From Bacteroidota bacterium (GTDB taxonomy: Bacteria > Bacteroidota > JABWAT01): a stretch of 50,236 bases of DNA. Within the stretch, counting starts at the first letter, position 1. Each line of letters opens with the position of its first letter. A model generated the notes under the pieces. It saw nothing but the letters and a program-made list of their open reading frames with translations, had not been told where the DNA came from and ran no database searches. Below are positions 37,793-49,257 of this stretch, piece after piece. A program made the position numbers and the translations under genes. The stretch covers positions 1 through 50,236 of the forward strand of contig JAFLBE010000032.1 in assembly GCA_017303995.1 (NCBI GenBank), in the 5' to 3' direction.

Positions 37793-37802
37793 GTGAACCG
37801 TG

Positions 37803-37860
37803 TAGAGACGGGTCTCAGACCCGTCTCCGTAATTGAAATTTGCGATTAATCGCGTCTCCA
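37803..37860. repeat. R2 unit after paralogue 1
   Basis: GAGACGGGTCT-C-AGACCCGTCTC (37805-37827) is followed by GCGATTAATCGC (37842-37853) and GTCTCC. The pair directly follows the stop codon and recurs after the other array genes. Confidence 0.8.
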
Positions 37861-37898
37861 TATTGAATTTGTATTACATCAATCAAAAAGATTGCAAA

Positions 37899-39947
37899 AT
37901 GAAAAAACAGATTGCCAAATATTGGTTTGCATCAGCACTAAGTCTGATTTCGCTCCAAACCATCGGTTTTGCACATATCCAGAATCCAGATTCTGCAACT
38001 GTCACCTTCAAGGTCAACACAGCCTTTGTTCAGGATACTTTATCTGCGAGGTCCACAGTTTCAATCAGAGGAACAGCTTTTGGCGGTGATGGATCTCTAA
38101 ATAATGGAATTAAATTAAAAAGTGCAGGTGGTGATTACTGGGAAGCCCAGAAAAGAGTACCGGTTGGACCTTCAGGAGGAACTTTTAAAATTGCAACTGT
38201 CACTCAAACAGGTACCGGCTGGGATCGGCATGTGGTTAATGAATTTGAAATAACCGGCGACACAACCATTACATATTTTACAACCGGCCTTAAGGAAATG
38301 TACACAGACCCGGTAACCGGAACTGAAATTACCCGAAGCGATAACTGGAATCCGCTTGAAATTTCAAAAGCAGGAACAACCGGAAAAATTGCCATTCACT
38401 TTAGGGTTAATATGCTAGTGCGGGAGTCATTTAACAGTTTTAACAACCCGGTTCAGGTCCGGGGCAATTTTAATAATTGGGATGGATCCACAACGTTGTA
38501 TCCCGAGGTCCGTCATGATGATTTTCAAACATCCCCTTATGATGCTGACCGGTATTTTTTCAGCAGAACGGTTTTAGTTCCAGATTCTTTATCCGGGAAA
38601 CAAATTGTGTACAAGTTTACCTATACAGATCCGGCCACACAGTGGGAATCGTTACCAGACAGGACGTTTATTCTAAATACGGATACAACTATCCAATGGA
38701 AATACTGGGATAATTTACCATACACCTTCTGTGGTATACCAGATGATAAAGTTGTCCTCAACTATTCTGTAGACCTTAACAAAGCAATTTTAACAAACGG
38801 ATTTAACAGACTCACCGACACCCTTTATGTAAAAGCGGGAATGGGAAATACTGCCGAATATATTATGGTAACCAGGCTGGCACATCCCTTGGCGGGTAAT
38901 GTTTTTTCGGGCATATCAGATTCAATTTTTGTTAAAGCTCACAACCCTTTATTCTATTCTTATTTCAAGAGAAATGCTGATGGGGAATTTGAAGAATTCT
39001 ATATGGATCATTTCGATTCAACCGGAGTTGTTGCCGGACCAAAATACCGAAAAGTTCTAATTAATGAACTTAACAAAACCTATCAGGTAGAAGATAAATT
39101 GACTGACCCTGTTTCCACCCACCGTCAGCCATTCTGGAAAAATTACAACAAAGTGGGAAAAGCAGTTTTAGCTACTTTTGAAGTAAACATTAATCCCGCA
39201 CGGTTTTTTACAAAAGTTATAGGTGGCACTCTGAATGATTTTCAAGGCGGACCAGTAGTTATCACTGGTGAAAATATTGATTCCTTTACAGTATATATAA
39301 ACGGACCTGCCACCAATACAACAAATAGCTGGTTATCATGGAATGAGACTGATCTCGGCTTAACCCGGCAACTTAATGATGAGGGAATCAATGGCGATGC
39401 AATAAAGGGTGATCATATCTGGACCATTCAATATTTGTATCCTGCAGAAGCTTTTGTCAGTCAGGAATTCAGGTTTGGAATAAAAGGGGCTGATAATGAA
39501 GGGGGAACGGGATTTAATCACATTTATAACCTGATTGCCGATGCACAAAATATTTATAAGGTACAGTTTGGTGATATTGACCCTTACCGTTATTTCTTTG
39601 AAGACTGCTTATATTGGGATTTTACAATATTTGGGTACATTAAGAATTGCTATATAACGCCCCATGTTGAAAATCAGTTTCATCCAAATAAAATCTCACT
39701 TTCCGCTTACCCGAACCCCTTCAATCCGGCAACCTTGATTTCGTATTCAATTCCTCAATCAGGGAAAGTGAGTTTGAAAGTCTTTGATTTGCTGGGAAGA
39801 CAAGTTGCCATCCTTGCAGAAGAAATAAAACCTGCCGGAACGCATCAGATCCCATTCCGTGGCGATGAACTGTCATCCGGAATTTATATAGTGAGAATGG
39901 AATCGGGCACCAAAGCCGAATCGGTCAAGGTGATTTTATTAAAATAG
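37899..39947 (+). CDS. Tandem secreted paralogue 2
   Basis: The start is placed at the ATG 37899, which begins a signal peptide (MKKQIAKYWFASALSLISL...IGFAH) shared with paralogues 3 and 5. An in-frame ATG 22 codons upstream lies in repeat DNA and is rejected. The 682-residue protein has the same A-B-C-D-sorting-domain order as paralogue 1. Domain D adds LNDEGINGDAIKGDHIWT (about residue 500), a DGxxGDxxxGD-type loop likely to bind calcium. No SD site is visible; GATTGCAAA precedes the ATG, as in paralogues 3 and 5. At 38544-38695 the DNA is identical to 36398-36549 of paralogue 1. Confidence 0.88.
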   Translation: MKKQIAKYWFASALSLISLQTIGFAHIQNPDSATVTFKVNTAFVQDTLSARSTVSIRGTAFGGDGSLNNGIKLKSAGGDYWEAQKRVPVGPSGGTFKIATVTQTGTGWDRHVVNEFEITGDTTITYFTTGLKEMYTDPVTGTEITRSDNWNPLEISKAGTTGKIAIHFRVNMLVRESFNSFNNPVQVRGNFNNWDGSTTLYPEVRHDDFQTSPYDADRYFFSRTVLVPDSLSGKQIVYKFTYTDPATQWESLPDRTFILNTDTTIQWKYWDNLPYTFCGIPDDKVVLNYSVDLNKAILTNGFNRLTDTLYVKAGMGNTAEYIMVTRLAHPLAGNVFSGISDSIFVKAHNPLFYSYFKRNADGEFEEFYMDHFDSTGVVAGPKYRKVLINELNKTYQVEDKLTDPVSTHRQPFWKNYNKVGKAVLATFEVNINPARFFTKVIGGTLNDFQGGPVVITGENIDSFTVYINGPATNTTNSWLSWNETDLGLTRQLNDEGINGDAIKGDHIWTIQYLYPAEAFVSQEFRFGIKGADNEGGTGFNHIYNLIADAQNIYKVQFGDIDPYRYFFEDCLYWDFTIFGYIKNCYITPHVENQFHPNKISLSAYPNPFNPATLISYSIPQSGKVSLKVFDLLGRQVAILAEEIKPAGTHQIPFRGDELSSGIYIVRMESGTKAESVKVILLK

Positions 39948-39957
39948 GTGAACCGTG

Positions 39958-40015
39958 TAGAGACGGGTCTCGGACCCGTCTCCGTAATTGAAATTTGCGA
40001 TTAATCGCGTCTCCA
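39958..40015. repeat. R2 unit after paralogue 2
   Basis: It is almost the same 58 bases as 37803-37860: one change in the loop of GAGACGGGTCT-C-GGACCCGTCTC, then an unchanged GCGATTAATCGC. The leader that follows also matches the one before paralogue 2. Confidence 0.8.
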
Positions 40016-40053
40016 TATTGAATTTGTATTACATCAATCATAAAGATTGCAAA

Positions 40054-42120
40054 ATGAAAAAACAGATTGCCAAATATTGGTTTGCATCAGCCTTAAGTCT
40101 GATTGCTTTTCAAACCATCGGTTTTTCACAAAATCAGAACCCAGATTCTGCCACCGTCACCTTCAAAGTCAACACCGCTTTTGTTCAGGATACAGTAACC
40201 CATTGTTCCGGAGTTTTTATAACCGGCGGGAATCAATTGGGGGACTGGAGTCTGCCGAACGGAATAAAATTAAAAAGTGTAGGTGGTGATTATTGGGAAG
40301 GATCAAAAACCTTCAAAACCGGATCAACAATCGGAACCTTTAAACCGGTAACCCAGACAATGAGCGGAATTGGGTGGGATCGGCATGAATATTCAGGTTT
40401 TACGGTTCATCAGGATACCACTATTACCATTTTTGCCACCGGACTTAAAGAGAAATACACCGATCCGGTTACAGGCTCTCTGATTACCCGTGGCGATGAC
40501 TGGAATCCGTTAACCTTTGAAAAAGCAAAAGAAGCAGGTAAAATTGCCGTTCTTTTTCGGGTAAATATGCAGAGTGAATGGAGCTTTAATCCTGCCACTC
40601 ACAAAGTTCAGGTTCGGGGTTCTTTTAATGAGTGGAGTGGTTCAACGGAGTTATATCCGGAAGTTCGCCATGATGATCTTGGGTCTTCAGTTTATCAGGC
40701 AGAAAAATATTTCTTTTCACGAATTGTACTCCTGAATGTAACTGATCTGCATTCGGAAGTTAAGTACAAATTTACTTATACAAATCCGGCCACTCAATGG
40801 GAATCATTCCAAGACAGGACCTTTACTTTAAATCAGGATACTACTCTATTCTGGAAATGGTTCAACGGTGGTCTTTATTATAAAGGATCTGATGAAGATT
40901 GTGGTGGTGGCCATGTTATTTATGACCGTGATGCCTATAAAGTTCATTTCAAAGTTGATTTGGATAAAGCAATAAAAGCAACCGGATTCGATCCCCAAAC
41001 CGATACGCTTTATGTTAAAGCCGGCCTTGCTGGCACAGGAACTCAGGTTGTTGAGATTAAGCTGAATCCGGAATCGGGAACCATCTTTTCAGGAGATTCA
41101 GGCGCTGATAGTCTGTATATTGGGATCCTGCCAATGAAGGGAAAAGAACTTCAAAATGAAATCGTGTTTTATGGATATTACAGACGGAATACTAACGGGG
41201 AATTTGAAGAATTCTATTTTGACATTTATGATTCAACAGGCAAAGCAAACGGACCAAAATTCCGGAAAATGATTGTTGCTGCAGGCGGAAAGGATATCTT
41301 TGCTGAAGATCTGATCAATGATAACAGTTCAACACACCGGGTTCCGTTTTTTAAAAATATGAATCCAATAGGAACTGAAACTACCTTAACTCTTGAAGCA
41401 AACCTAAACCCGGCGATTTTCTTTACAACGATTCTTGGCGGTTCTTTGAAAGATATTCAGGGTGGACCATTAGTGGTTGATTCAACAAATATCAGTAATT
41501 TGGCGGTTTATATTAACGGCCCTGGTATTGGTGGATGGAAACAATGGAATGCAGACAGCCTTGGAGAATCCAGAAGGATGAATTACATGGGTTTAGGAAA
41601 ATGGTCAATTGATTTATTGTTTGATGCCAATGCAATAGTCAGTCAGGAATTTAAACTGAGTATCGGTGGTGCTGATAATGAAGCGAACTATGGAAATCGT
41701 CATATTACCAATTTGAACCCGATTTCAACAAATAGTCAAAGTATTCAATTTGGTGATACTCAACCCCTTCGTTACAAGAATGAAAAAGGCTTCTGGGATT
41801 TCAATGCTGGTAAAGGCGTTATAACTTCAATTGAAGTGAATTCAAACAGTGAAAATCCAAATAAAATCTCACTTTCTGCCTACCCGAACCCCTTCAATCC
41901 GGCTACCTTGATCTCCTTTTCCATTCCCCAATCAGGGAAAGTCAGTCTGAAAGTTTTTGATTTGCTGGGAAGACAGGTCGCCACCCTTTCAGAAGAAATA
42001 AAACCTGCCGGAACGCATCTGATTCCGTTTCGTGGTGATGATCTGGCATCGGGAATTTATATGGTGAGAATGGAATCAGGCAGCAAAACCGAATCCCTCA
42101 AGGTGATTTTGTTAAAATAG
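40054..42120 (+). CDS. Tandem secreted paralogue 3
   Basis: The 688-residue protein starts at the ATG 40054 with the shared signal peptide (MKKQIAKYWFASALSLIAF...GFSQ). The A-B-C-D-sorting layout is kept, but sequence in A to C is clearly diverged from paralogues 1 and 2 (for example ITGGNQLGDWSLPNG in A and VQVRGSFNEWSGS in B). Domain D ends in YKNEKGFWDFNAGKGVITSIEVNSNSE, nearly the same as in paralogue 4. The last 200 bases, encoding the sorting domain, are close to identical in all five genes. The IS110 element lies in the gap just downstream, so the coding region is intact. Confidence 0.88.
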   Translation: MKKQIAKYWFASALSLIAFQTIGFSQNQNPDSATVTFKVNTAFVQDTVTHCSGVFITGGNQLGDWSLPNGIKLKSVGGDYWEGSKTFKTGSTIGTFKPVTQTMSGIGWDRHEYSGFTVHQDTTITIFATGLKEKYTDPVTGSLITRGDDWNPLTFEKAKEAGKIAVLFRVNMQSEWSFNPATHKVQVRGSFNEWSGSTELYPEVRHDDLGSSVYQAEKYFFSRIVLLNVTDLHSEVKYKFTYTNPATQWESFQDRTFTLNQDTTLFWKWFNGGLYYKGSDEDCGGGHVIYDRDAYKVHFKVDLDKAIKATGFDPQTDTLYVKAGLAGTGTQVVEIKLNPESGTIFSGDSGADSLYIGILPMKGKELQNEIVFYGYYRRNTNGEFEEFYFDIYDSTGKANGPKFRKMIVAAGGKDIFAEDLINDNSSTHRVPFFKNMNPIGTETTLTLEANLNPAIFFTTILGGSLKDIQGGPLVVDSTNISNLAVYINGPGIGGWKQWNADSLGESRRMNYMGLGKWSIDLLFDANAIVSQEFKLSIGGADNEANYGNRHITNLNPISTNSQSIQFGDTQPLRYKNEKGFWDFNAGKGVITSIEVNSNSENPNKISLSAYPNPFNPATLISFSIPQSGKVSLKVFDLLGRQVATLSEEIKPAGTHLIPFRGDDLASGIYMVRMESGSKTESLKVILLK

Positions 42121-42130
42121 GTGAACCGTG

Positions 42131-42186
42131 TAGAGACGGGTCTCAGACCCGTCTCTGTAATTGAAATATGCGATTAATCGCATCTC
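42131..42186. repeat. R2 unit after paralogue 3, left flank and target of the IS110 element
   Basis: The GAGACGGGTCT palindrome is followed by GCGATTAATCGC-ATCTC, where other copies read GCGTCTC. The element begins within or right after the final CTC (42184-42186). Confidence 0.8.
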
Positions 42187-42187
42187 A

Positions 42188-42195
42188 TATGTTTG
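42188..42195 (+). promoter_or_regulatory. -7 half of a junction-dependent promoter in the IS110 circle
   Basis: TATGTTTG fits the Bacteroidota -7 element TAnnTTTG. It has no -33 partner in the inserted state. If the element's ends join through one CT core, TTTG at 43478-43481 falls exactly 20 bases upstream, giving TTTG-N20-TAnnTTTG. Read as sigma-70 the same junction gives TTGACT-N17-TATGTT. Confidence 0.55.
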
Positions 42196-42249
42196 TATAA
42201 ATCTGGAAATGAACCAGAAAAGACTTAAACTTAACAATGCCACTTAGTT

Positions 42250-42414
42250 AAAAACTGGGATAGCACCGTGCGCGTCTAAATACGACAACGATATTCTCGT
42301 AGAGAAATTGCACCCGGTTTTTAGCTTCTTTCGAATTTGAGCAGTACTTAGATCGGTACAGAACTCTTAGATACCAGATCGCATAAATCCATGAGAAAAA
42401 ACGAAGAAGAAGCT
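42250..42414 (+). ncRNA. Predicted bridge RNA of the IS110 element
   Basis: Two stem-loops are visible. Loop 1 is closed by AAAAACTGGG (42250-42259) with CCCGGTTTTT (42313-42322). Inside, CGCGTCT (42271-42277) reads like the left target plus core, and GTAGAG (42299-42304) is the reverse complement of the right target CTCTAC. Loop 2 is closed by AGCTTCTT (42323-42330) with AAGAAGCT (42407-42414). Inside, GCAGTACT (42341-42348) matches the element's right end GCAGTACCT with one wobble, and ATGAG (42391-42395) is the reverse complement of the left end CTCAT. This is the target-loop/donor-loop order known for IS110 bridge RNAs. RNA ends are approximate. Confidence 0.7.
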
Positions 42415-42450
42415 TTAACTATTGGTTGTTAATCCAACAAAAAGGACACA

Positions 42451-43482
42451 ATGAAAGCCAAAGACAACCTGATTAAAACTTCCTTTGGTATCGACATCTC
42501 CAAAGACAAATTTGATGCCGCCTTGATGAGTTTGTCCAGTGACTTCGAACAGAAAACTTTTCCGAAGGTTCCTACCTTTGATAATAATCTGTCCGGATTT
42601 GCTAAGTTTCTCTCCTGGGCTAACGCTCAGACTCCGGATTCTGCCACCTCGGTTTGGTTTGTTATGGAAGCAACCGGTGTTTACTACGAGTCACTGGCTC
42701 ACTTTCTTGCGGTGAACCAGAAACAGGTTGCAGTTGTACTTCCAACAAGGTCAAAAGCCTTCAGCGCCAGTCTGTCTCAAAAATCAAAAACAGACTCAAT
42801 CGATGCGCTCATGCTTGCTCAAATGGGCCTGGAGCGCACTCTAGATACGTTTGTTGTTCCTGAACCTCTTCTCCATGAAATCAAAATCCGGTGCAGAGAA
42901 CTTCAGCAGATCAAGAAACAAAAAACCAGTCATTCCAATCAGCTTCATGCTTTAAAGTATAGCTATCAGCCTCCGGCATCGGTTATTTTGAGGCATGAAA
43001 ACACGATCCGGCATTATGACGACCAGATCGACATCATTGAAAAAGAACTCACCGATCTGGTCAATCAAAATTCTGAACTCAAAGATAAAATTCAGAAAGT
43101 GATCACCATTAAAGGCGTCGGACTGATAACCGTTCTCTCTATTGTTGCTGAAACCAATGGTTTTGCTCTCATTGAAAATGCTAGACAACTGACCAGTTAT
43201 GCCGGTCTTGATGTTAAACTCAATGAAAGTGGCAAATTCAAAGGCAAGACAAGAATCAGCAAAGCGGGAAACTCGAACATCCGGCATGCACTCTATTTTC
43301 CAGCAATGTCAGCCATCCAATATAACGACCCATTGAAAGATTTTTACGAAAGACTCTCTCAAAGAACAAGTACAAAACAAGCCGCTTTAATTGCCGTTAT
43401 GCGAAAATTACTGATCCTTATTTTTACCCTTTGGAAAACTGGTGAAACCTGGAATCCCAACTATTTATCCAAATCCGTTTGA
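42451..43482 (+). CDS. IS110-family transposase (DEDD recombinase)
   Basis: The 343-residue protein has an N-terminal RuvC-like DEDD domain with Asp15 (FGIDISKDKFD), Glu73 (VMEATGVY), and Asp115/Asp118 (KTDSIDALMLA). A coiled-coil stretch (about 180-215) leads to the Tnp_20 domain, which opens with ITIKGVGLITVLSIVAE. It includes LTSYAGLD and ISKAGNSNIRHALYF, where Ser270 is the likely nucleophile. With a bridge RNA such enzymes join element and target through a Holliday-type intermediate. AAAGGACACA precedes the ATG. The gene is intact, so the element may still move. Confidence 0.95.
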   Translation: MKAKDNLIKTSFGIDISKDKFDAALMSLSSDFEQKTFPKVPTFDNNLSGFAKFLSWANAQTPDSATSVWFVMEATGVYYESLAHFLAVNQKQVAVVLPTRSKAFSASLSQKSKTDSIDALMLAQMGLERTLDTFVVPEPLLHEIKIRCRELQQIKKQKTSHSNQLHALKYSYQPPASVILRHENTIRHYDDQIDIIEKELTDLVNQNSELKDKIQKVITIKGVGLITVLSIVAETNGFALIENARQLTSYAGLDVKLNESGKFKGKTRISKAGNSNIRHALYFPAMSAIQYNDPLKDFYERLSQRTSTKQAALIAVMRKLLILIFTLWKTGETWNPNYLSKSV

Positions 43483-43510
43483 CTTTGATCGCAGTACCTC
43501 TACAATAAAT

Positions 43511-43533
43511 ATTTGCGATTAATCGCGTCTCCG
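43511..43533. repeat. R2 unit on the right side of the IS110 element
   Basis: GCGATTAATCGC (43515-43526) followed by GTCTCC. Together with the unit at 42131-42186 it formed a double unit before insertion. Confidence 0.75.
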
Positions 43534-43574
43534 TAATTGAAATTGAATATTTAAATCCAAAAAGGGCAACCCCA

Positions 43575-46500
43575 ATGAAAAAGATGTTATCTCTGTTCGT
43601 TCTAACCGTAATTTCCGGATTGTTATTTGCTGGAAATCCGCCCAAAAAAATGCCAGCAAAACTGGATAAAGGCGAATCCTCAGATGCAGGTTCAGCACCA
43701 ATCCGGTCAAAGATCAACGAATCAGTTTTGATCGGGAATTCGGTCAATTCATATGCCTGGCAGGGTTCCGGGACAAATCAAATTTATTATGATGTTGCCA
43801 GCGGAACCATCGCAGTGGTAAAAAGAAGGGGATCATTGGATACTGCAATTCCCGTTGGGGCTGGGCAAATCGTAACCCATCAGTCAGCCGATCAGGGTTC
43901 TGTCTGGAGTTTGGGAAACCATGTAAATGCAACACTTCCACATCAAAATGGAAGACACCCGAATGTTGCTATTCTTCCCTCAGGAGAAATAATCACCCTG
44001 TGGAATGATATTTATAACGGAACCATGTTTGGGATTTTGGGAATTGCTTCCACCAATTTGTCTGATGGAACTTTGATTTCGGCTTATCTTGATAGTACAC
44101 TTTCTGCCGAAATTGATGAAAATCCTGGTAGTGATGAAGCGATTTACGGCGTTCAGGATGAAATTTTTGTTGATGAAAAAAATAACACATTTTATTTTGG
44201 TGGCAACGCAGTTAACTATCCAAATACCTTGTTTCTTTTCAAATCTACCGATAAAGGTCAATCACATCAACTGGTAAAACTTTGGAAAAATGTGTATGAC
44301 AGCGGGCAAATTGCAGACGTCAGCACAACTCATGGTGACTTTTTTGGTGATATTGGCTATTTCATTGCTCAGGTCTTACCTGATTCAGCCTGGGCTGTTG
44401 AAAACGGATTAACTCCAAATGTTTTGGTTCCCTATCTGGTTCAGTTTCAAAACGGTTCCATTGCAGATGAAGGATTTCTTGACCTGAGCGACATTTTTAC
44501 TTCTCTCGGAATTGACAGCTGGACCTATGAGTGGGATGTGGTTACTGATAAAGACGGTAACTGGCACATGTTCATTCATGGATATTTGGCTGGTGGAACA
44601 GAAGACACCCATGTTGGTATTTATGAAATCTTTTCCACCTCACCTGGTTTGACTTCGGTCAGTGCAAAGAAAGTTGCAGATATTACCTTGGTTGAGTGTG
44701 AAATTGATGCTTTGAACAACCTGTATGGAGCTGCAGATATTCATGCCGCACGGGATGCAGAAGGCAAGTATGTCTTTGTAAAATATTTGGATTGGGATCC
44801 AGCTGACTCTCCTGAAACCTCGACAGAAATGTTTGTTACCGGCCGTGCGATTTCCCGTGAAACTTATTCTGACCCGATTGCTGTGAACGACAATGACTTT
44901 GCAAATCAGTTTTTCACACAGGCTGCTCCCCGTGTCACTGCCTTAGGTGCTGGTGATGCTGCCGGAACGAAAAAATTCCAGATCCACTCGTCCTGGGTTG
45001 AATTTGGCGGCACCCCAGTTTCAGGACTTGCTGCTGCAAATTTATATTATGCCGGACCTAACATTGACTTGCCGGACTATTATAATTTGAACGATTCTGC
45101 AACTGTTACCTTTAAAGTCAATACAGCCTTTGTTCAGGATACGTTGTCTGCCGGATCTTCAGTTTCTATTCGTGGCAGCGCTTTTGGTGGTGATTGGTCA
45201 CTAGCAAAAGGGATCAAATTTAAAAACGTGGGCGGAGATTATTGGGAGGCTAAAAAAACCGTCTTTCCCGGTCAATCGGGTGGCATTTTCAAAATTGTAA
45301 CTGCCACCCAAAGTGGAACCGGTTGGGACCGTCATGAGATCGCTCAGTTTGAAATTAAGGACGATACAACAATTACCTATTTCACAACTGGTTTAACCAA
45401 TACCTATCCTGATCCTGTTACCGGCGCTGAAATTACACGTGGCGATGACTGGGATCCTCTTGAAATCGCAAAAGAAGGTACAACTGGTAAAGTTGCTGTT
45501 CACTTCCGTGTAAATATGCAACCTAGGGACGGATTTAATCCTGCTCAGCATGAAGTACAAGTTCGTGGCGGATTCAATGATTGGGGTGGTAATACCAAAC
45601 TTTATCCTGAGGTTCGATATGATGATATGGATGCCACAACCATATATGATGCACCTAAATACTTCTTCAGCAGAACTGTACTTATTGATGCAGCCAGCAT
45701 TGGTAGTGAATTGAAATACAAGTTCACTTATACCGATCCTTCTACTCAATGGGAATCCATTCAAGATCGGGTTTTTAACCTTTCAGGAGACACAACCCTT
45801 TACTGGAAGTGGTTTGATAATTATTACATTTGTGAATGTCCGCCATATGGATCGCTATTTAATGTTTCCGTTAAAGTTAATCTTGAAAAAGCAATCAATA
45901 CCAATGGTTTTAACCCACAAACCGACACACTGATTGCCAGAGTTGGCTTTCTGGGCACAGCCTGGAAAACGGTTGATGTAAAATTGGTTCCCCCGCCCTT
46001 GGGTACAGTTTATATTGGTGATTCTGGCCTTGATAGTCTGCGTTCGCTTTACAGTAACGTCGTTTTTTATCAATATTTTAAGAAAAATGTGACCGGTGAA
46101 TATGAAGAATTTTACTTTGATTATTTTAACACTAAACCCAATTTAACTGCTACTAAATACAGAAAAGTTTTTATGCCAAATAGCGGGACGACTGTTTTTA
46201 TTGAAGACCTTGAAACCGATAAATTTTCAATGCATCGGCAACCCGTATTTAAAAATTATACGCCGATGGCAGATTCAACCCGGATTAATTTTGAAGTTGA
46301 TTTTTCCCCTCTTTTCTACTTTGTGAATGAATTGGGTGATTCTTTAACTGGGGGATGGTCAACGGGTGATCCACTCTATGTTTCCGGTAAAAATATTTCG
46401 AGTCTCCCTTTTGAATTGGTAATAAGGCAATATTGTGATGTTTGTATTGGCTTACCCATTTCGCCTATCAGTCTCAAAGATGATGGAACAGGTTTGGATC

Positions 46501-47036
46501 GGGTGGCCGGTGATAGAATTTATTCGGGTTCACTAACGGCAACACAGGAATGGAATTATGGATTCAATTGTACCGTATTTATTGCTGGTCTAGGACTCGA
46601 ATCAAATGCGAATGATCATCTGGTCAATTTATATCCCCAACCGGAAAATAATATCAGTTTGGTGTTCGGTGAAACCGATCCGTTTCGATTCCGGAATGAA
46701 AAAGGATACTGGGATTTCAATGCCGGTAAAGGCGTTATAACTTCAATTGAGGTGAATTCAAACAGTGAAAAACCAAACAAAATCGCTGTCTCCGCCTACC
46801 CCAACCCATTTAATCCGGCAACGTTGATTTCGTATTCCTTACCCCAAACCGGAAAGGTGAGTCTGAAGGTTTTTGATTTGCTGGGAAGACAAGTTGCCAT
46901 CCTTGCAGAAGAAATAAAACCTGCAGGAACATATCAGATTGCATTCCGTGGCGATGATTTGTCATCAGGAATTTATATCGTCAGAATGGAATCTGGCAAC
47001 AAGACCGAATCGATCAAGGTGATTTTGTTAAAATAG
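43575..47036 (+). CDS. Tandem secreted paralogue 4, enlarged by an N-terminal propeller-like region
   Basis: The 1153-residue protein has its own signal peptide (MKKMLSLFVLTVISGLLFAG). About 490 residues follow that are absent from the other members, rich in short strands and Asp-box-like segments (HPNVAILPSGEIITLWNDI, KDGNWHMFIHG). This suggests a sialidase/BNR-like beta-propeller, though no full catalytic set is evident. At about residue 508 (SATVTFKVNTAFVQDTL) the common A-B-C-D-sorting block begins. Domain D has LKDDGTGLDRVAGDRIYSG, a calcium-loop-like motif. Either this is a fusion or the others are trimmed copies. It follows the IS110 element, with its ATG 75 bases past the insertion. 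Confidence 0.85.
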   Translation: MKKMLSLFVLTVISGLLFAGNPPKKMPAKLDKGESSDAGSAPIRSKINESVLIGNSVNSYAWQGSGTNQIYYDVASGTIAVVKRRGSLDTAIPVGAGQIVTHQSADQGSVWSLGNHVNATLPHQNGRHPNVAILPSGEIITLWNDIYNGTMFGILGIASTNLSDGTLISAYLDSTLSAEIDENPGSDEAIYGVQDEIFVDEKNNTFYFGGNAVNYPNTLFLFKSTDKGQSHQLVKLWKNVYDSGQIADVSTTHGDFFGDIGYFIAQVLPDSAWAVENGLTPNVLVPYLVQFQNGSIADEGFLDLSDIFTSLGIDSWTYEWDVVTDKDGNWHMFIHGYLAGGTEDTHVGIYEIFSTSPGLTSVSAKKVADITLVECEIDALNNLYGAADIHAARDAEGKYVFVKYLDWDPADSPETSTEMFVTGRAISRETYSDPIAVNDNDFANQFFTQAAPRVTALGAGDAAGTKKFQIHSSWVEFGGTPVSGLAAANLYYAGPNIDLPDYYNLNDSATVTFKVNTAFVQDTLSAGSSVSIRGSAFGGDWSLAKGIKFKNVGGDYWEAKKTVFPGQSGGIFKIVTATQSGTGWDRHEIAQFEIKDDTTITYFTTGLTNTYPDPVTGAEITRGDDWDPLEIAKEGTTGKVAVHFRVNMQPRDGFNPAQHEVQVRGGFNDWGGNTKLYPEVRYDDMDATTIYDAPKYFFSRTVLIDAASIGSELKYKFTYTDPSTQWESIQDRVFNLSGDTTLYWKWFDNYYICECPPYGSLFNVSVKVNLEKAINTNGFNPQTDTLIARVGFLGTAWKTVDVKLVPPPLGTVYIGDSGLDSLRSLYSNVVFYQYFKKNVTGEYEEFYFDYFNTKPNLTATKYRKVFMPNSGTTVFIEDLETDKFSMHRQPVFKNYTPMADSTRINFEVDFSPLFYFVNELGDSLTGGWSTGDPLYVSGKNISSLPFELVIRQYCDVCIGLPISPISLKDDGTGLDRVAGDRIYSGSLTATQEWNYGFNCTVFIAGLGLESNANDHLVNLYPQPENNISLVFGETDPFRFRNEKGYWDFNAGKGVITSIEVNSNSEKPNKIAVSAYPNPFNPATLISYSLPQTGKVSLKVFDLLGRQVAILAEEIKPAGTYQIAFRGDDLSSGIYIVRMESGNKTESIKVILLK

Positions 47037-47041
47037 GTGAA

Positions 47042-47099
47042 CCGCGTAGAGACGGGTCTGAGACCCGTCTCCACAAAGAAAATGAGTAATTTATCGCAT
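47042..47099. repeat. R2-like unit after paralogue 4
   Basis: GAGACGGGTCT-G-AGACCCGTCTC (47049-47071) is followed by a decayed TTTATCGCATTTCCG half in place of GCGATTAATCGC. Confidence 0.75.
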
Positions 47100-47142
47100 T
47101 TCCGTTTTGAATTTGTACAGCAACAATTTCAAGGATTGCAAA

Positions 47143-49161
47143 ATGAAAAAGCAAAATGTTCGATATTGGTTTGCATCAGCACTAAGTCTATTTGCTTTTC
47201 AAACCATCGGTTTTTCACAAATCCAGAATCCAGATTCAGCAACCGTTACCTTCAGGGTCAACACCGCCTTTGTTCAGGATACCCTCACATCGGGTTCCTC
47301 AGTTTCAATCAGGGGAACTGCTTTTGGCGGTGACTGGTCTCTGGAAAAAGGAATTAAATTAAAAAATGCGGATGGTGACTATTGGGAAGCAGAAAAAAAA
47401 GTTCCAGTCGGGTCATCTGGTGGACCCTTCAAAATGGTAACACTGACAGGGACAGGAACCGGCTGGGATCGCCATCAGGTCGATCCGTTTGAAATAAAAA
47501 ATGACACGACCCTTGAACTTTTCGCAACCGGACTGAAAGAAACCTATACAGACCCGGTAACCGGAACTGAAATTACCCGTGACGATAATTGGAATCCGCT
47601 TGAACTTGCCAAAAACGGAGAAACCAGTGTTTATGCGGTTCACTTCAGGGTGAATATGCAGGGGGTTGAGGCTTTCAAGGCTTCTAAACATGTTGTCACT
47701 GTTCGTGGCTCCTTCAACAGCTGGTCAGCAGCAGATACCTTAAAAGCTGAGGTTCGTCATGATGATCTCACCAGCGGATTTGGACCTTATGAAGCTGATC
47801 AGTTTTTCTTCAGTAAAACGATTTTGATTCCTAAAACTTATGTGGGAGAAATCAAATACAAGTTTGTAGTTAGTATGGGGGAAGACGTTAGTTGGGAATC
47901 GATTTCTGATAGATCTTTCATGTTTTCTGGAGATACAACACTTAATTGGAAATGGTTTGATAATAAACAACCTGTTTATTGTGATTGTGAAATACTCTTT
48001 CCACTAACTTTAAATGTTGATATGGAAAAAGCTATTCAATCAAACGGATTTAATCCGCAAACGGATACTTTGGTTGCTGTTGCTGGGTCACTGGGAAGTG
48101 CTGCTAAAATTGTTGAGTTCGAACTTCACCCCACTTCAGGTACGATATACACCGGCTCTGATTCAATTTTATCAGCCTTCAACCGTACCGTTTTTTACCG
48201 GTTTTTTAAAAAGAGTCAGTCAAACCAGATTGTTGAAACCTATTTTGATTTTTACAATGACCAACTGCAACCGTCAGCACCTATTTTCCGGAAAATTGTA
48301 ATGCCTTCATCAGGTGAATCGGTTACCGGCTGGGATATTGATAAAACTGTTGAATCCACCCACCGTCAGCCCTTTTTTAAAAATCTAAATAAAATCAGCG
48401 ACAGTACGATTCTGGTCATCGAAGCGGATCTGCGACCGGCGCATTTTTTTACGAAAGAATTGGGCGACACACTTGTTGACCTTCTTGGCGGATCTTTAAA
48501 GGTAACAGCATCAAATATTGATACTCTGGGACTTTACATCAGAGGAACTCAAATCTGGTGGGACTGCTGGTGTCCATGGTGGGATTATCCGCCCGAATTA
48601 TTTGATAACGGACTTTATGGCGATCAGGTTGCCGGGGACAATATTTATACAATCAAGTTCATTTATTCACCAAACTCCCCAAGTGCTCAGGAATTTGTAT
48701 TCATGATTGGTAGCGGAAATAATGAAAGCAAATTATTTTATCACGTGGTTAATTTGATTGATCGGGAGGAAAACAAAATCAGGGTTCAATTCGGCGAAAC
48801 TGATCCCCTTCGTTACCGGAACGATAAAGGTTTCTGGGATTTCAATGCAGGAAAGGGGGTAATGACTTCAATAAATGAGAGTCCCTATAATGAGGTTCCA
48901 GGTAAAATGACTATTTCTGCCTACCCGAACCCGTTCAATCCGGCAACCTTGATTTCGTATTCGATTCCACAATCCGGGAAAGTGAGTCTGAAGGTTTTTG
49001 ATTTACTGGGCAGACAGGTTGGCATTCTAACAGAAGAAATAAAACCTGCCGGTACTCATCTGATTCCGTTTCGTGGTGATGATCTGGCATCAGGAATTTA
49101 TTTGGTGAGAATGGAATCAGGCAACAAAACCGAATCAGTTAAAGTCATCCTGTTAAAATAG
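47143..49161 (+). CDS. Tandem secreted paralogue 5
   Basis: The ATG at 47143 begins the shared signal peptide (MKKQNVRYWFASALSLFAF...GFSQ); an ATG 12 codons earlier is in repeat DNA. The 672-residue protein keeps the A-B-C-D-sorting order. Domain A (VSIRGTAFGGDWSLEKG) resembles paralogue 4 most closely, and domain D contains an unusual Trp/Cys-rich loop WWDCWCPWWDYPPE (about 478-491). LYGDQVAGDNIYT follows as the probable calcium loop. Export by T9SS to the surface is expected. Function beyond carbohydrate or ligand binding cannot be read. Confidence 0.88.
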   Translation: MKKQNVRYWFASALSLFAFQTIGFSQIQNPDSATVTFRVNTAFVQDTLTSGSSVSIRGTAFGGDWSLEKGIKLKNADGDYWEAEKKVPVGSSGGPFKMVTLTGTGTGWDRHQVDPFEIKNDTTLELFATGLKETYTDPVTGTEITRDDNWNPLELAKNGETSVYAVHFRVNMQGVEAFKASKHVVTVRGSFNSWSAADTLKAEVRHDDLTSGFGPYEADQFFFSKTILIPKTYVGEIKYKFVVSMGEDVSWESISDRSFMFSGDTTLNWKWFDNKQPVYCDCEILFPLTLNVDMEKAIQSNGFNPQTDTLVAVAGSLGSAAKIVEFELHPTSGTIYTGSDSILSAFNRTVFYRFFKKSQSNQIVETYFDFYNDQLQPSAPIFRKIVMPSSGESVTGWDIDKTVESTHRQPFFKNLNKISDSTILVIEADLRPAHFFTKELGDTLVDLLGGSLKVTASNIDTLGLYIRGTQIWWDCWCPWWDYPPELFDNGLYGDQVAGDNIYTIKFIYSPNSPSAQEFVFMIGSGNNESKLFYHVVNLIDREENKIRVQFGETDPLRYRNDKGFWDFNAGKGVMTSINESPYNEVPGKMTISAYPNPFNPATLISYSIPQSGKVSLKVFDLLGRQVGILTEEIKPAGTHLIPFRGDDLASGIYLVRMESGNKTESVKVILLK

Positions 49162-49172
49162 ATGAACCGCGT

Positions 49173-49257
49173 AGAGACGGGTCTTAGACCCGTCTCCGTA
49201 TTGTAAAGACGCGATTCATCGCGTCTCTGTATGAAAATATGCCGTTTATCCCGTCTC
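49173..49257. repeat. Double R2 unit after paralogue 5
   Basis: GAGACGGGTCT-T-AGACCCGTCTC is followed by GACGCGATTCATCGCGTC and then ATGCCGTTTATCCCGTCTCC. The spacing of the last two palindromes is the model for the uninterrupted IS110 target site. Confidence 0.75.

What the first reader, a model, noticed from the sequence alone, without database searches (positions are those of the whole stretch)
42184..43500. IS110 element with a readable bridge RNA whose target guide spells the host's dispersed palindrome
The leader before the transposase folds into two stem-loops. Loop 1 carries CGCGTCT and GTAGAG, which match left target plus core and the reverse complement of the right target in the reconstructed site CGC(A/G)TCTCTAC. 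Loop 2 carries GCAGTACT and ATGAG, which match the element's own right and left ends. The left target guide matches the common R2 form (CGCGTCT) better than the actual copy hit (CGCATCT). The element therefore seems programmed to land in a family of intergenic palindromes, a safe-harbour strategy that spares genes.
Basis: partly seen in the sequence, partly recalled or inferred. Interest (0 to 1): 0.88.

Follow-up and report, generated by a model that had tools for sequence, protein, structure and literature searches.

The report
IS110 element guided to dispersed palindromes
A small jumping gene carries a guide RNA that spells out a short palindrome scattered between this bacterium's genes, and two sister copies sitting in two versions of that palindrome differ at the guide letter that tells those versions apart, so we see an RNA-guided element shifting its aim by one base.

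Summary
Window 42184-43499 is an intact IS110-group element of 1314 bp with a CT core at both junctions. Its leader encodes a bridge RNA with a target loop (LTG CGCGTCT, RTG GTAGAG) and a donor loop (LDG GCAGTACTT, RDG ATGAG). Single-sequence folding is not significant, but comparison with homologues is decisive. The basal target-loop stem is kept by compensatory changes in 17 leaders. Across homologues of 32-49% identity the leaders match their own left target, right target and right end better than permuted partners (0 of 50,000 permutations each). Five leaders found blind with a covariance model all match their own left flanks at 6-7 of 7 bases. A second copy of the element (98% identical over its left 515 nt, only synonymous coding changes) sits in a different palindrome subtype (GACCCGTCT instead of CGCATCT), and its guide reads CCCGTCT instead of CGCGTCT. 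All 16 free sites in the 4.31-Mb genome that match either guide exactly (11 bases) lie in this palindrome family; 34 of 35 palindromes tested lie outside long ORFs. The 'safe-harbour strategy' is consistent but untested. RNA-guided IS110 elements in REP palindromes are known (IS621), so this is a new member of a known kind, with an unusually clean natural one-base retargeting.

The parts
42166..42185 (+). left half of target: degenerate palindrome (GCGATTAATCGC core at 42170-42181) ending CGCAT + core CT (42184-42185)
   Evidence: the same spacer motif without the IS at 37842, 39997 and 43515
42186..43497 (+). IS110-group insertion sequence between its two CT cores (1314 bp with one core)
   Evidence: end definition by core duplication and homologous ends C(A/G)TATGTT...CACAGTAC in relatives
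42188..42193 (+). TATGTT, -10-like half of a promoter that forms only when the ends are joined in the circle
   Evidence: TTGACT-17 bp-TATGTT across the joined right-left ends; TTG at 17-bp spacing in most homologues, TTGACA in three
42247..42259 (+). 5' arm of target-loop basal stem (GTTAAAAACTGGG)
   Evidence: 9-bp stem kept with compensatory changes in 17 homologous leaders
42271..42277 (+). left target guide CGCGTCT (LTG, core included)
   Evidence: the sister copy has CCCGTCT and flank CCCGTCT
42299..42304 (+). right target guide GTAGAG (RTG), pairs with CTCTAC
42313..42325 (+). 3' arm of target-loop basal stem (CCCGGTTTTTAGC)
42341..42349 (+). left donor guide GCAGTACTT (LDG), matches own right end GCAGTACCT; its G covaries with the right end (A or T in homologues)
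42391..42395 (+). right donor guide ATGAG (RDG), reverse complement of CT+CAT at own left end
   Evidence: follows the left end as ATGAG/ACGAG/AGGAG/ACCAG in homologues at leader position about 177-238
42324..42413 (+). donor-binding loop, closed by GCTTCTTTCG / CGAAGAAGAAGC
   Evidence: sequence; inner hairpin covaries; covariance-model hit 42240-42413
42451..43482 (+). transposase, 343 aa, DEDD RuvC-like domain (D15, E73, D115, D118 by alignment) plus Transposase_20 (candidate Ser270)
43479..43484 (+). TTGACT, -35-like half of the circle-junction promoter, overlapping the stop codon
43498..43503 (+). right core CT plus right target CTAC

Best explanation
This is an autonomous IS110-group element (type with the guide RNA upstream of the transposase) that is copied or moved as a circle. 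Joining its ends creates a promoter that transcribes a bridge RNA of roughly 170-200 nt from the leader. The donor loop of this RNA holds the element's own joined ends. The target loop pairs with both strands of an 11-base site, CGC(G/A)T-CT-CTAC or CCCGT-CT-CTAC, which is the arm of a dispersed intergenic palindrome (GTAGAGAC...GTCTCTAC). The DEDD/Ser recombinase then exchanges strands at the CT core. Shown by sequence: element, ends, guide-flank matches, conserved structure, palindromic target family, and guide change matched to target change between sister copies. Inferred: transcription, circle formation, catalysis, and that the guide mutation preceded and caused the different site choice.
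For: Own-versus-permuted guide matching over 16-18 elements, scanning the whole leader without anchoring: left target z 5.6, right target z 6.4, left donor z 5.7, 0 of 50,000 permutations each. Five leaders found only by the covariance model, with guides picked by a fixed rule, match their own left flanks at 7,6,6,6,6 of 7 (total 31, null mean 12.2, maximum of 200,000 draws 22.5). Compensatory changes in all 16 predicted pairs and in the basal stem. Right donor guides follow left ends. Sister copy: 11 differences in 515 nt, 5 coding changes all synonymous, 4 of the 6 leader changes in the target loop, none in the donor loop, and G->C at 42272 matches the G->C difference of the flanks. All 16 exact 11-base guide sites free in the genome are in palindromes.
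Against: The window copy's own left flank has only 4.5 of 7 non-core matches. The sister copy's right flank is missing because the contig ends inside the element. Only two copies exist in the genome. The window's base before GTAGAG (C) does not pair with its own right flank (A). A chance origin of the one matching guide difference has a probability of about 1% (11 differences, 2 informative positions, 515 sites, 3 bases). No RNA, circle or transposition data were available.
Confidence: 0.93

Rival explanations
1. The transposase recognises the palindrome as a structure (cruciform or hairpin), as proposed for other REP-inserting elements before bridge RNAs were known; the guide matches are incidental.
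For: Both copies sit in palindrome arms; protein recognition of REP was the earlier proposal (PMC1525189).
Against: Homologues with the same RNA fold insert at varied sites that follow their leaders; both insertions are at the same asymmetric CT in the arm, not at the centre; the guide differs with the palindrome subtype.
Confidence: 0.04
2. The two copies arose by duplication or recombination between palindromic repeats carrying the element, not by two guided insertions, and the guide difference is drift.
For: Only two copies; the C44 copy is cut by the contig end; palindromes are repeats that can recombine.
Against: Flanks outside the palindromes are unrelated; the guide base differs exactly as the flanks do, with about 1% chance probability; the donor loop has no changes and coding changes are synonymous.
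Confidence: 0.1
3. The leader is an ordinary 5' UTR and the short matches are coincidence.
For: Fold of the single sequence is unremarkable (z -0.9); no Rfam family.
Against: Covariation, permutation and blind tests.
Confidence: 0.01

Closest known systems
IS621 and its bridge RNA (Durrant et al. 2024, PMC11208160; solved structure 8wt6)
   Same: IS110 group, leader-encoded bridge RNA, LTG/RTG/LDG/RDG in the same order, CT core, junction promoter, target in dispersed REP palindromes
   Different: Protein clearly diverged (phmmer E 5e-28); target CGCGTCTCTAC instead of ATCAGGCCTAC; host palindrome family unrelated to E. coli REP; relatives are in Bacteroidota
ISPpu9, ISPpu10, ISPa11, ISRm19 (IS110 family in REP; Tobes and Pareja 2006, PMC1525189)
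   Same: IS110-family elements found in REP palindromes in 4/4 to 7/7 copies
   Different: Different hosts and palindromes; guides not read in that work
ISEc11/ISXne4 seekRNA natural redirection (Siddiquee et al. 2024, PMC11187229)
   Same: Natural change of the target-matching bases together with the target
   Different: There between proteins of 72% identity and largely different targets; here between near-identical sister copies in one genome by one base

Membership tests
IS110 family (bridge-RNA group) | DEDD RuvC-like domain plus Transposase_20 domain | tested here: met
   (alignment to ISCro4: D15, E73, D115, D118, SKAG motif)
IS110 family (bridge-RNA group) | long non-coding region upstream of the transposase, short right end, no long terminal inverted repeats | tested here: met
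   265-nt leader, 15 nt between stop codon and core
IS110 family (bridge-RNA group) | two-loop RNA with four guides matching target and own ends | tested here: met
IS110 family (bridge-RNA group) | core dinucleotide (CT) at both junctions, no longer target duplication | tested here: met
   CT at 42184-42185 and 43498-43499; no empty allele was available
IS110 family (bridge-RNA group) | promoter created by joining right and left ends | tested here: met
   TTGACT-17-TATGTT; spacing conserved in most homologues; sequence only, activity not tested
IS110 family (bridge-RNA group) | RNA bound by the recombinase and directing recombination | not testable with these tools
   needs biochemistry or a plasmid assay
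REP-targeting IS | copies lie within a dispersed, mainly intergenic palindrome family | tested here: met
   2 of 2 copies; palindrome pattern 40 hits against 1 in the reversed control; 34 of 35 palindromes outside ORFs of 150 aa or more, although those loci are 67% ORF-covered

The most novel reading that the evidence does not exclude
The element tracks the diversification of a host palindrome family: because the palindromes share their ends but vary in the middle, single guide mutations move the element between subfamilies, so a repeat family acts as a ladder for stepwise natural reprogramming of a bridge RNA. The two sister copies would be one observed step.
Probability: 0.4. Interest if true: 0.6.

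Novelty: new member of a known kind. Interest (0 to 1): 0.5.

Why it matters
How bridge RNAs acquire new targets in nature is open; the published examples compare diverged elements. Here two near-identical copies in one genome, with only synonymous coding changes, differ in the guide base that separates the two palindromes they occupy. This gives a directly testable one-base case of target switching, and a further bridge recombinase with a readable RNA. It also shows independently that IS110 elements living in REP-like palindromes occur in an unrelated host group with an unrelated palindrome family.

Tried and rejected
Rfam gave no match. The single-sequence fold was not significant. The viral contig scan found no relatives. 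The class-level search reached only four genomes and no closer element. Literature searches for the palindrome sequence returned only primers and unrelated text. The MAFFT alignment missed the outer stem, so its arms were aligned by hand, and the hand-anchored guide test is given less weight than the unanchored and blind tests. The second CT of CTCTAC was considered as core and rejected because the left junction then reads CA. Structural recognition and coincidence were rejected as set out under the rivals.

Full report
What is there. The window holds an intact IS110-group element. The left junction reads AATCGCAT-CT-CATATGTTTG (core 42184-42185) and the right junction GATCGCAGTAC-CT-CTACAATAAA (core 43498-43499), giving 1314 bp with one core. 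The 343-aa product has the DEDD_Tnp_IS110 and Transposase_20 domains and aligns with the solved ISCro4 and IS621 transposases, including the DEDD residues.

Guides. The leader contains, in the published order, a left target guide CGCGTCT (42271), a right target guide GTAGAG (42299), a left donor guide GCAGTACTT (42341) and a right donor guide ATGAG (42391). On the one sequence this is suggestive but weak: the left guide matches its own flank at 4.5 of 7 non-core positions (G:T wobble counted half), the minimum free energy is ordinary (z -0.9), and Rfam knows no such family.

Comparative tests. I collected homologous elements of 32-49% identity from other genomes and from plasmids of Hymenobacter, Rufibacter, Persicobacter and Spirosoma, with ends C(A/G)TATGTT...CACAGTAC (variants in the more distant ones) and CT cores. 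Scanning each whole leader for the best match to its own flanks and to every other element's flanks gave an excess for own left target (z 5.6), own right target (z 6.4) and own right end (z 5.7), with 0 of 50,000 permutations reaching the observed value in each case. Individual cases vary: some are perfect (L101, L030) or nearly so on the left (L105), while L029 and L103 match poorly on the left but perfectly on the right, and L100 shows no left match in the target loop. Right donor guides track the left end (CTCAT/ATGAG, CTCGT/ACGAG, CTCCT/AGGAG, CTGGT/ACCAG). A covariance model from 11 leaders found further leaders in other genomes. Five of these, not used before, were read with a fixed rule (seven bases before CTA[AG]ATA) and matched their own left flanks at 7,6,6,6,6 of 7; no draw of 200,000 random sets came near. 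All 16 predicted pairs have compensatory changes, and the basal stem of the target loop is kept in 17 leaders with different sequences.

Second copy. Contig C44 holds the left 515 nt of a sister copy. It lies in GAGACGGGTCTGAGACCCGTCT, another subtype of the palindrome. Its guide reads CCCGTCT where the window copy reads CGCGTCT. The copies differ at 11 positions: five coding changes, all synonymous; four in the target loop region; two shortly before the start codon; none in the donor loop. The guide change at 42272 is the one that separates the two targets at that position. My estimate of the chance of such a match among 11 random changes is about 1%. A second target-loop change (42298, C to T) lies next to the right guide; the C44 right flank is not assembled, so it cannot be judged.

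Target family. The palindromes share GTAGAGAC...GTCTCTAC and vary in the middle (GGGTCTGAGACCC, GCGATTAATCGC, GTTGCATGCAAC, AAGGCATTGCCTT and others). There are 40 pattern hits in the genome against one in the reversed control. Of 35 distinct palindromes tested, 34 are outside ORFs of 150 aa or more, although such ORFs cover 67% of those loci. Of 22 ten-base sites SCRTCTCTAC, the 16 that extend to an exact 11-base target of either guide (11 CCCGTCTCTAC, 5 CGCGTCTCTAC) are all in palindromes. No free CGCATCTCTAC exists, so the window copy sits in a one-mismatch (wobble) variant, or the flank changed after insertion. The same sites are frequent in one congener (39 in G002) but at control level in another congener (G001) and in G003 of the same family, so the palindrome family itself expands unevenly.

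Expression. In the circle form the right end and left end join to TTGACT-17-TATGTT; the spacing is conserved in most homologues, and three have a perfect TTGACA. In the inserted form the two halves lie at opposite ends. This fits the junction promoter described for IS621 (PMC11208160).

Relation to what is known. IS110 bridge RNAs (PMC11208160), IS110 elements in REP palindromes (PMC1525189) and natural redirection (PMC11187229) are all published. The element meets every IS110 criterion that could be tested. New here are the particular family, host and palindrome, and the one-base guide difference between near-identical copies. The safe-harbour idea is compatible with the intergenic, repeated target, but selection for harmlessness is inference. 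Three multi-copy homologues (G111, G004, G056) also insert in conserved flanks repeated in their genomes, so choosing a dispersed repeat looks common in this clade.

Noticed in passing
window 37800-49230: Array of paralogous large secreted-type proteins (one with a Por_Secre_tail domain) whose spacers repeat a GGGTCTGAGACCC palindrome just after the stop codon, several followed by a GCGATTAATCGC palindrome (37802/37842, 39957/39997, 42130/42170, 47046, 49171).
   Followed up: partly
L148, L149, L155: Leaders matching the bridge-RNA model and their own left flank, but with no IS110 transposase found by tblastn in the locus: solo left ends or remnants.
   Followed up: partly
L105, L110, L114, L118, L121 (G111); L030, L047, L115, L119 (G004); L031, L048, L116, L120 (G056): Multi-copy homologues inserted in flanks that are themselves conserved among insertion sites (e.g. 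ACTCCGAGAGCATCACT, RAGGCTGTCT/CTAAAAAGGTCTCTTAAAA), i.e. dispersed repeats other than the window's palindrome.
   Followed up: partly
L057, start of locus: The left end CGTATGTTTGTAATCT is duplicated in tandem before the leader, as if two insertions or a slipped end occurred.
   Followed up: no
window 43512-43532: A further GCGATTAATCGCGTCTC palindrome starts about 12 bp to the right of the insertion site and is unoccupied.
   Followed up: no
G000:C111:6904-7320 and G000:C57:728-1141: Two distant IS110-type transposases (25-28% identity) in the same genome; their target sites were not examined.
   Followed up: no
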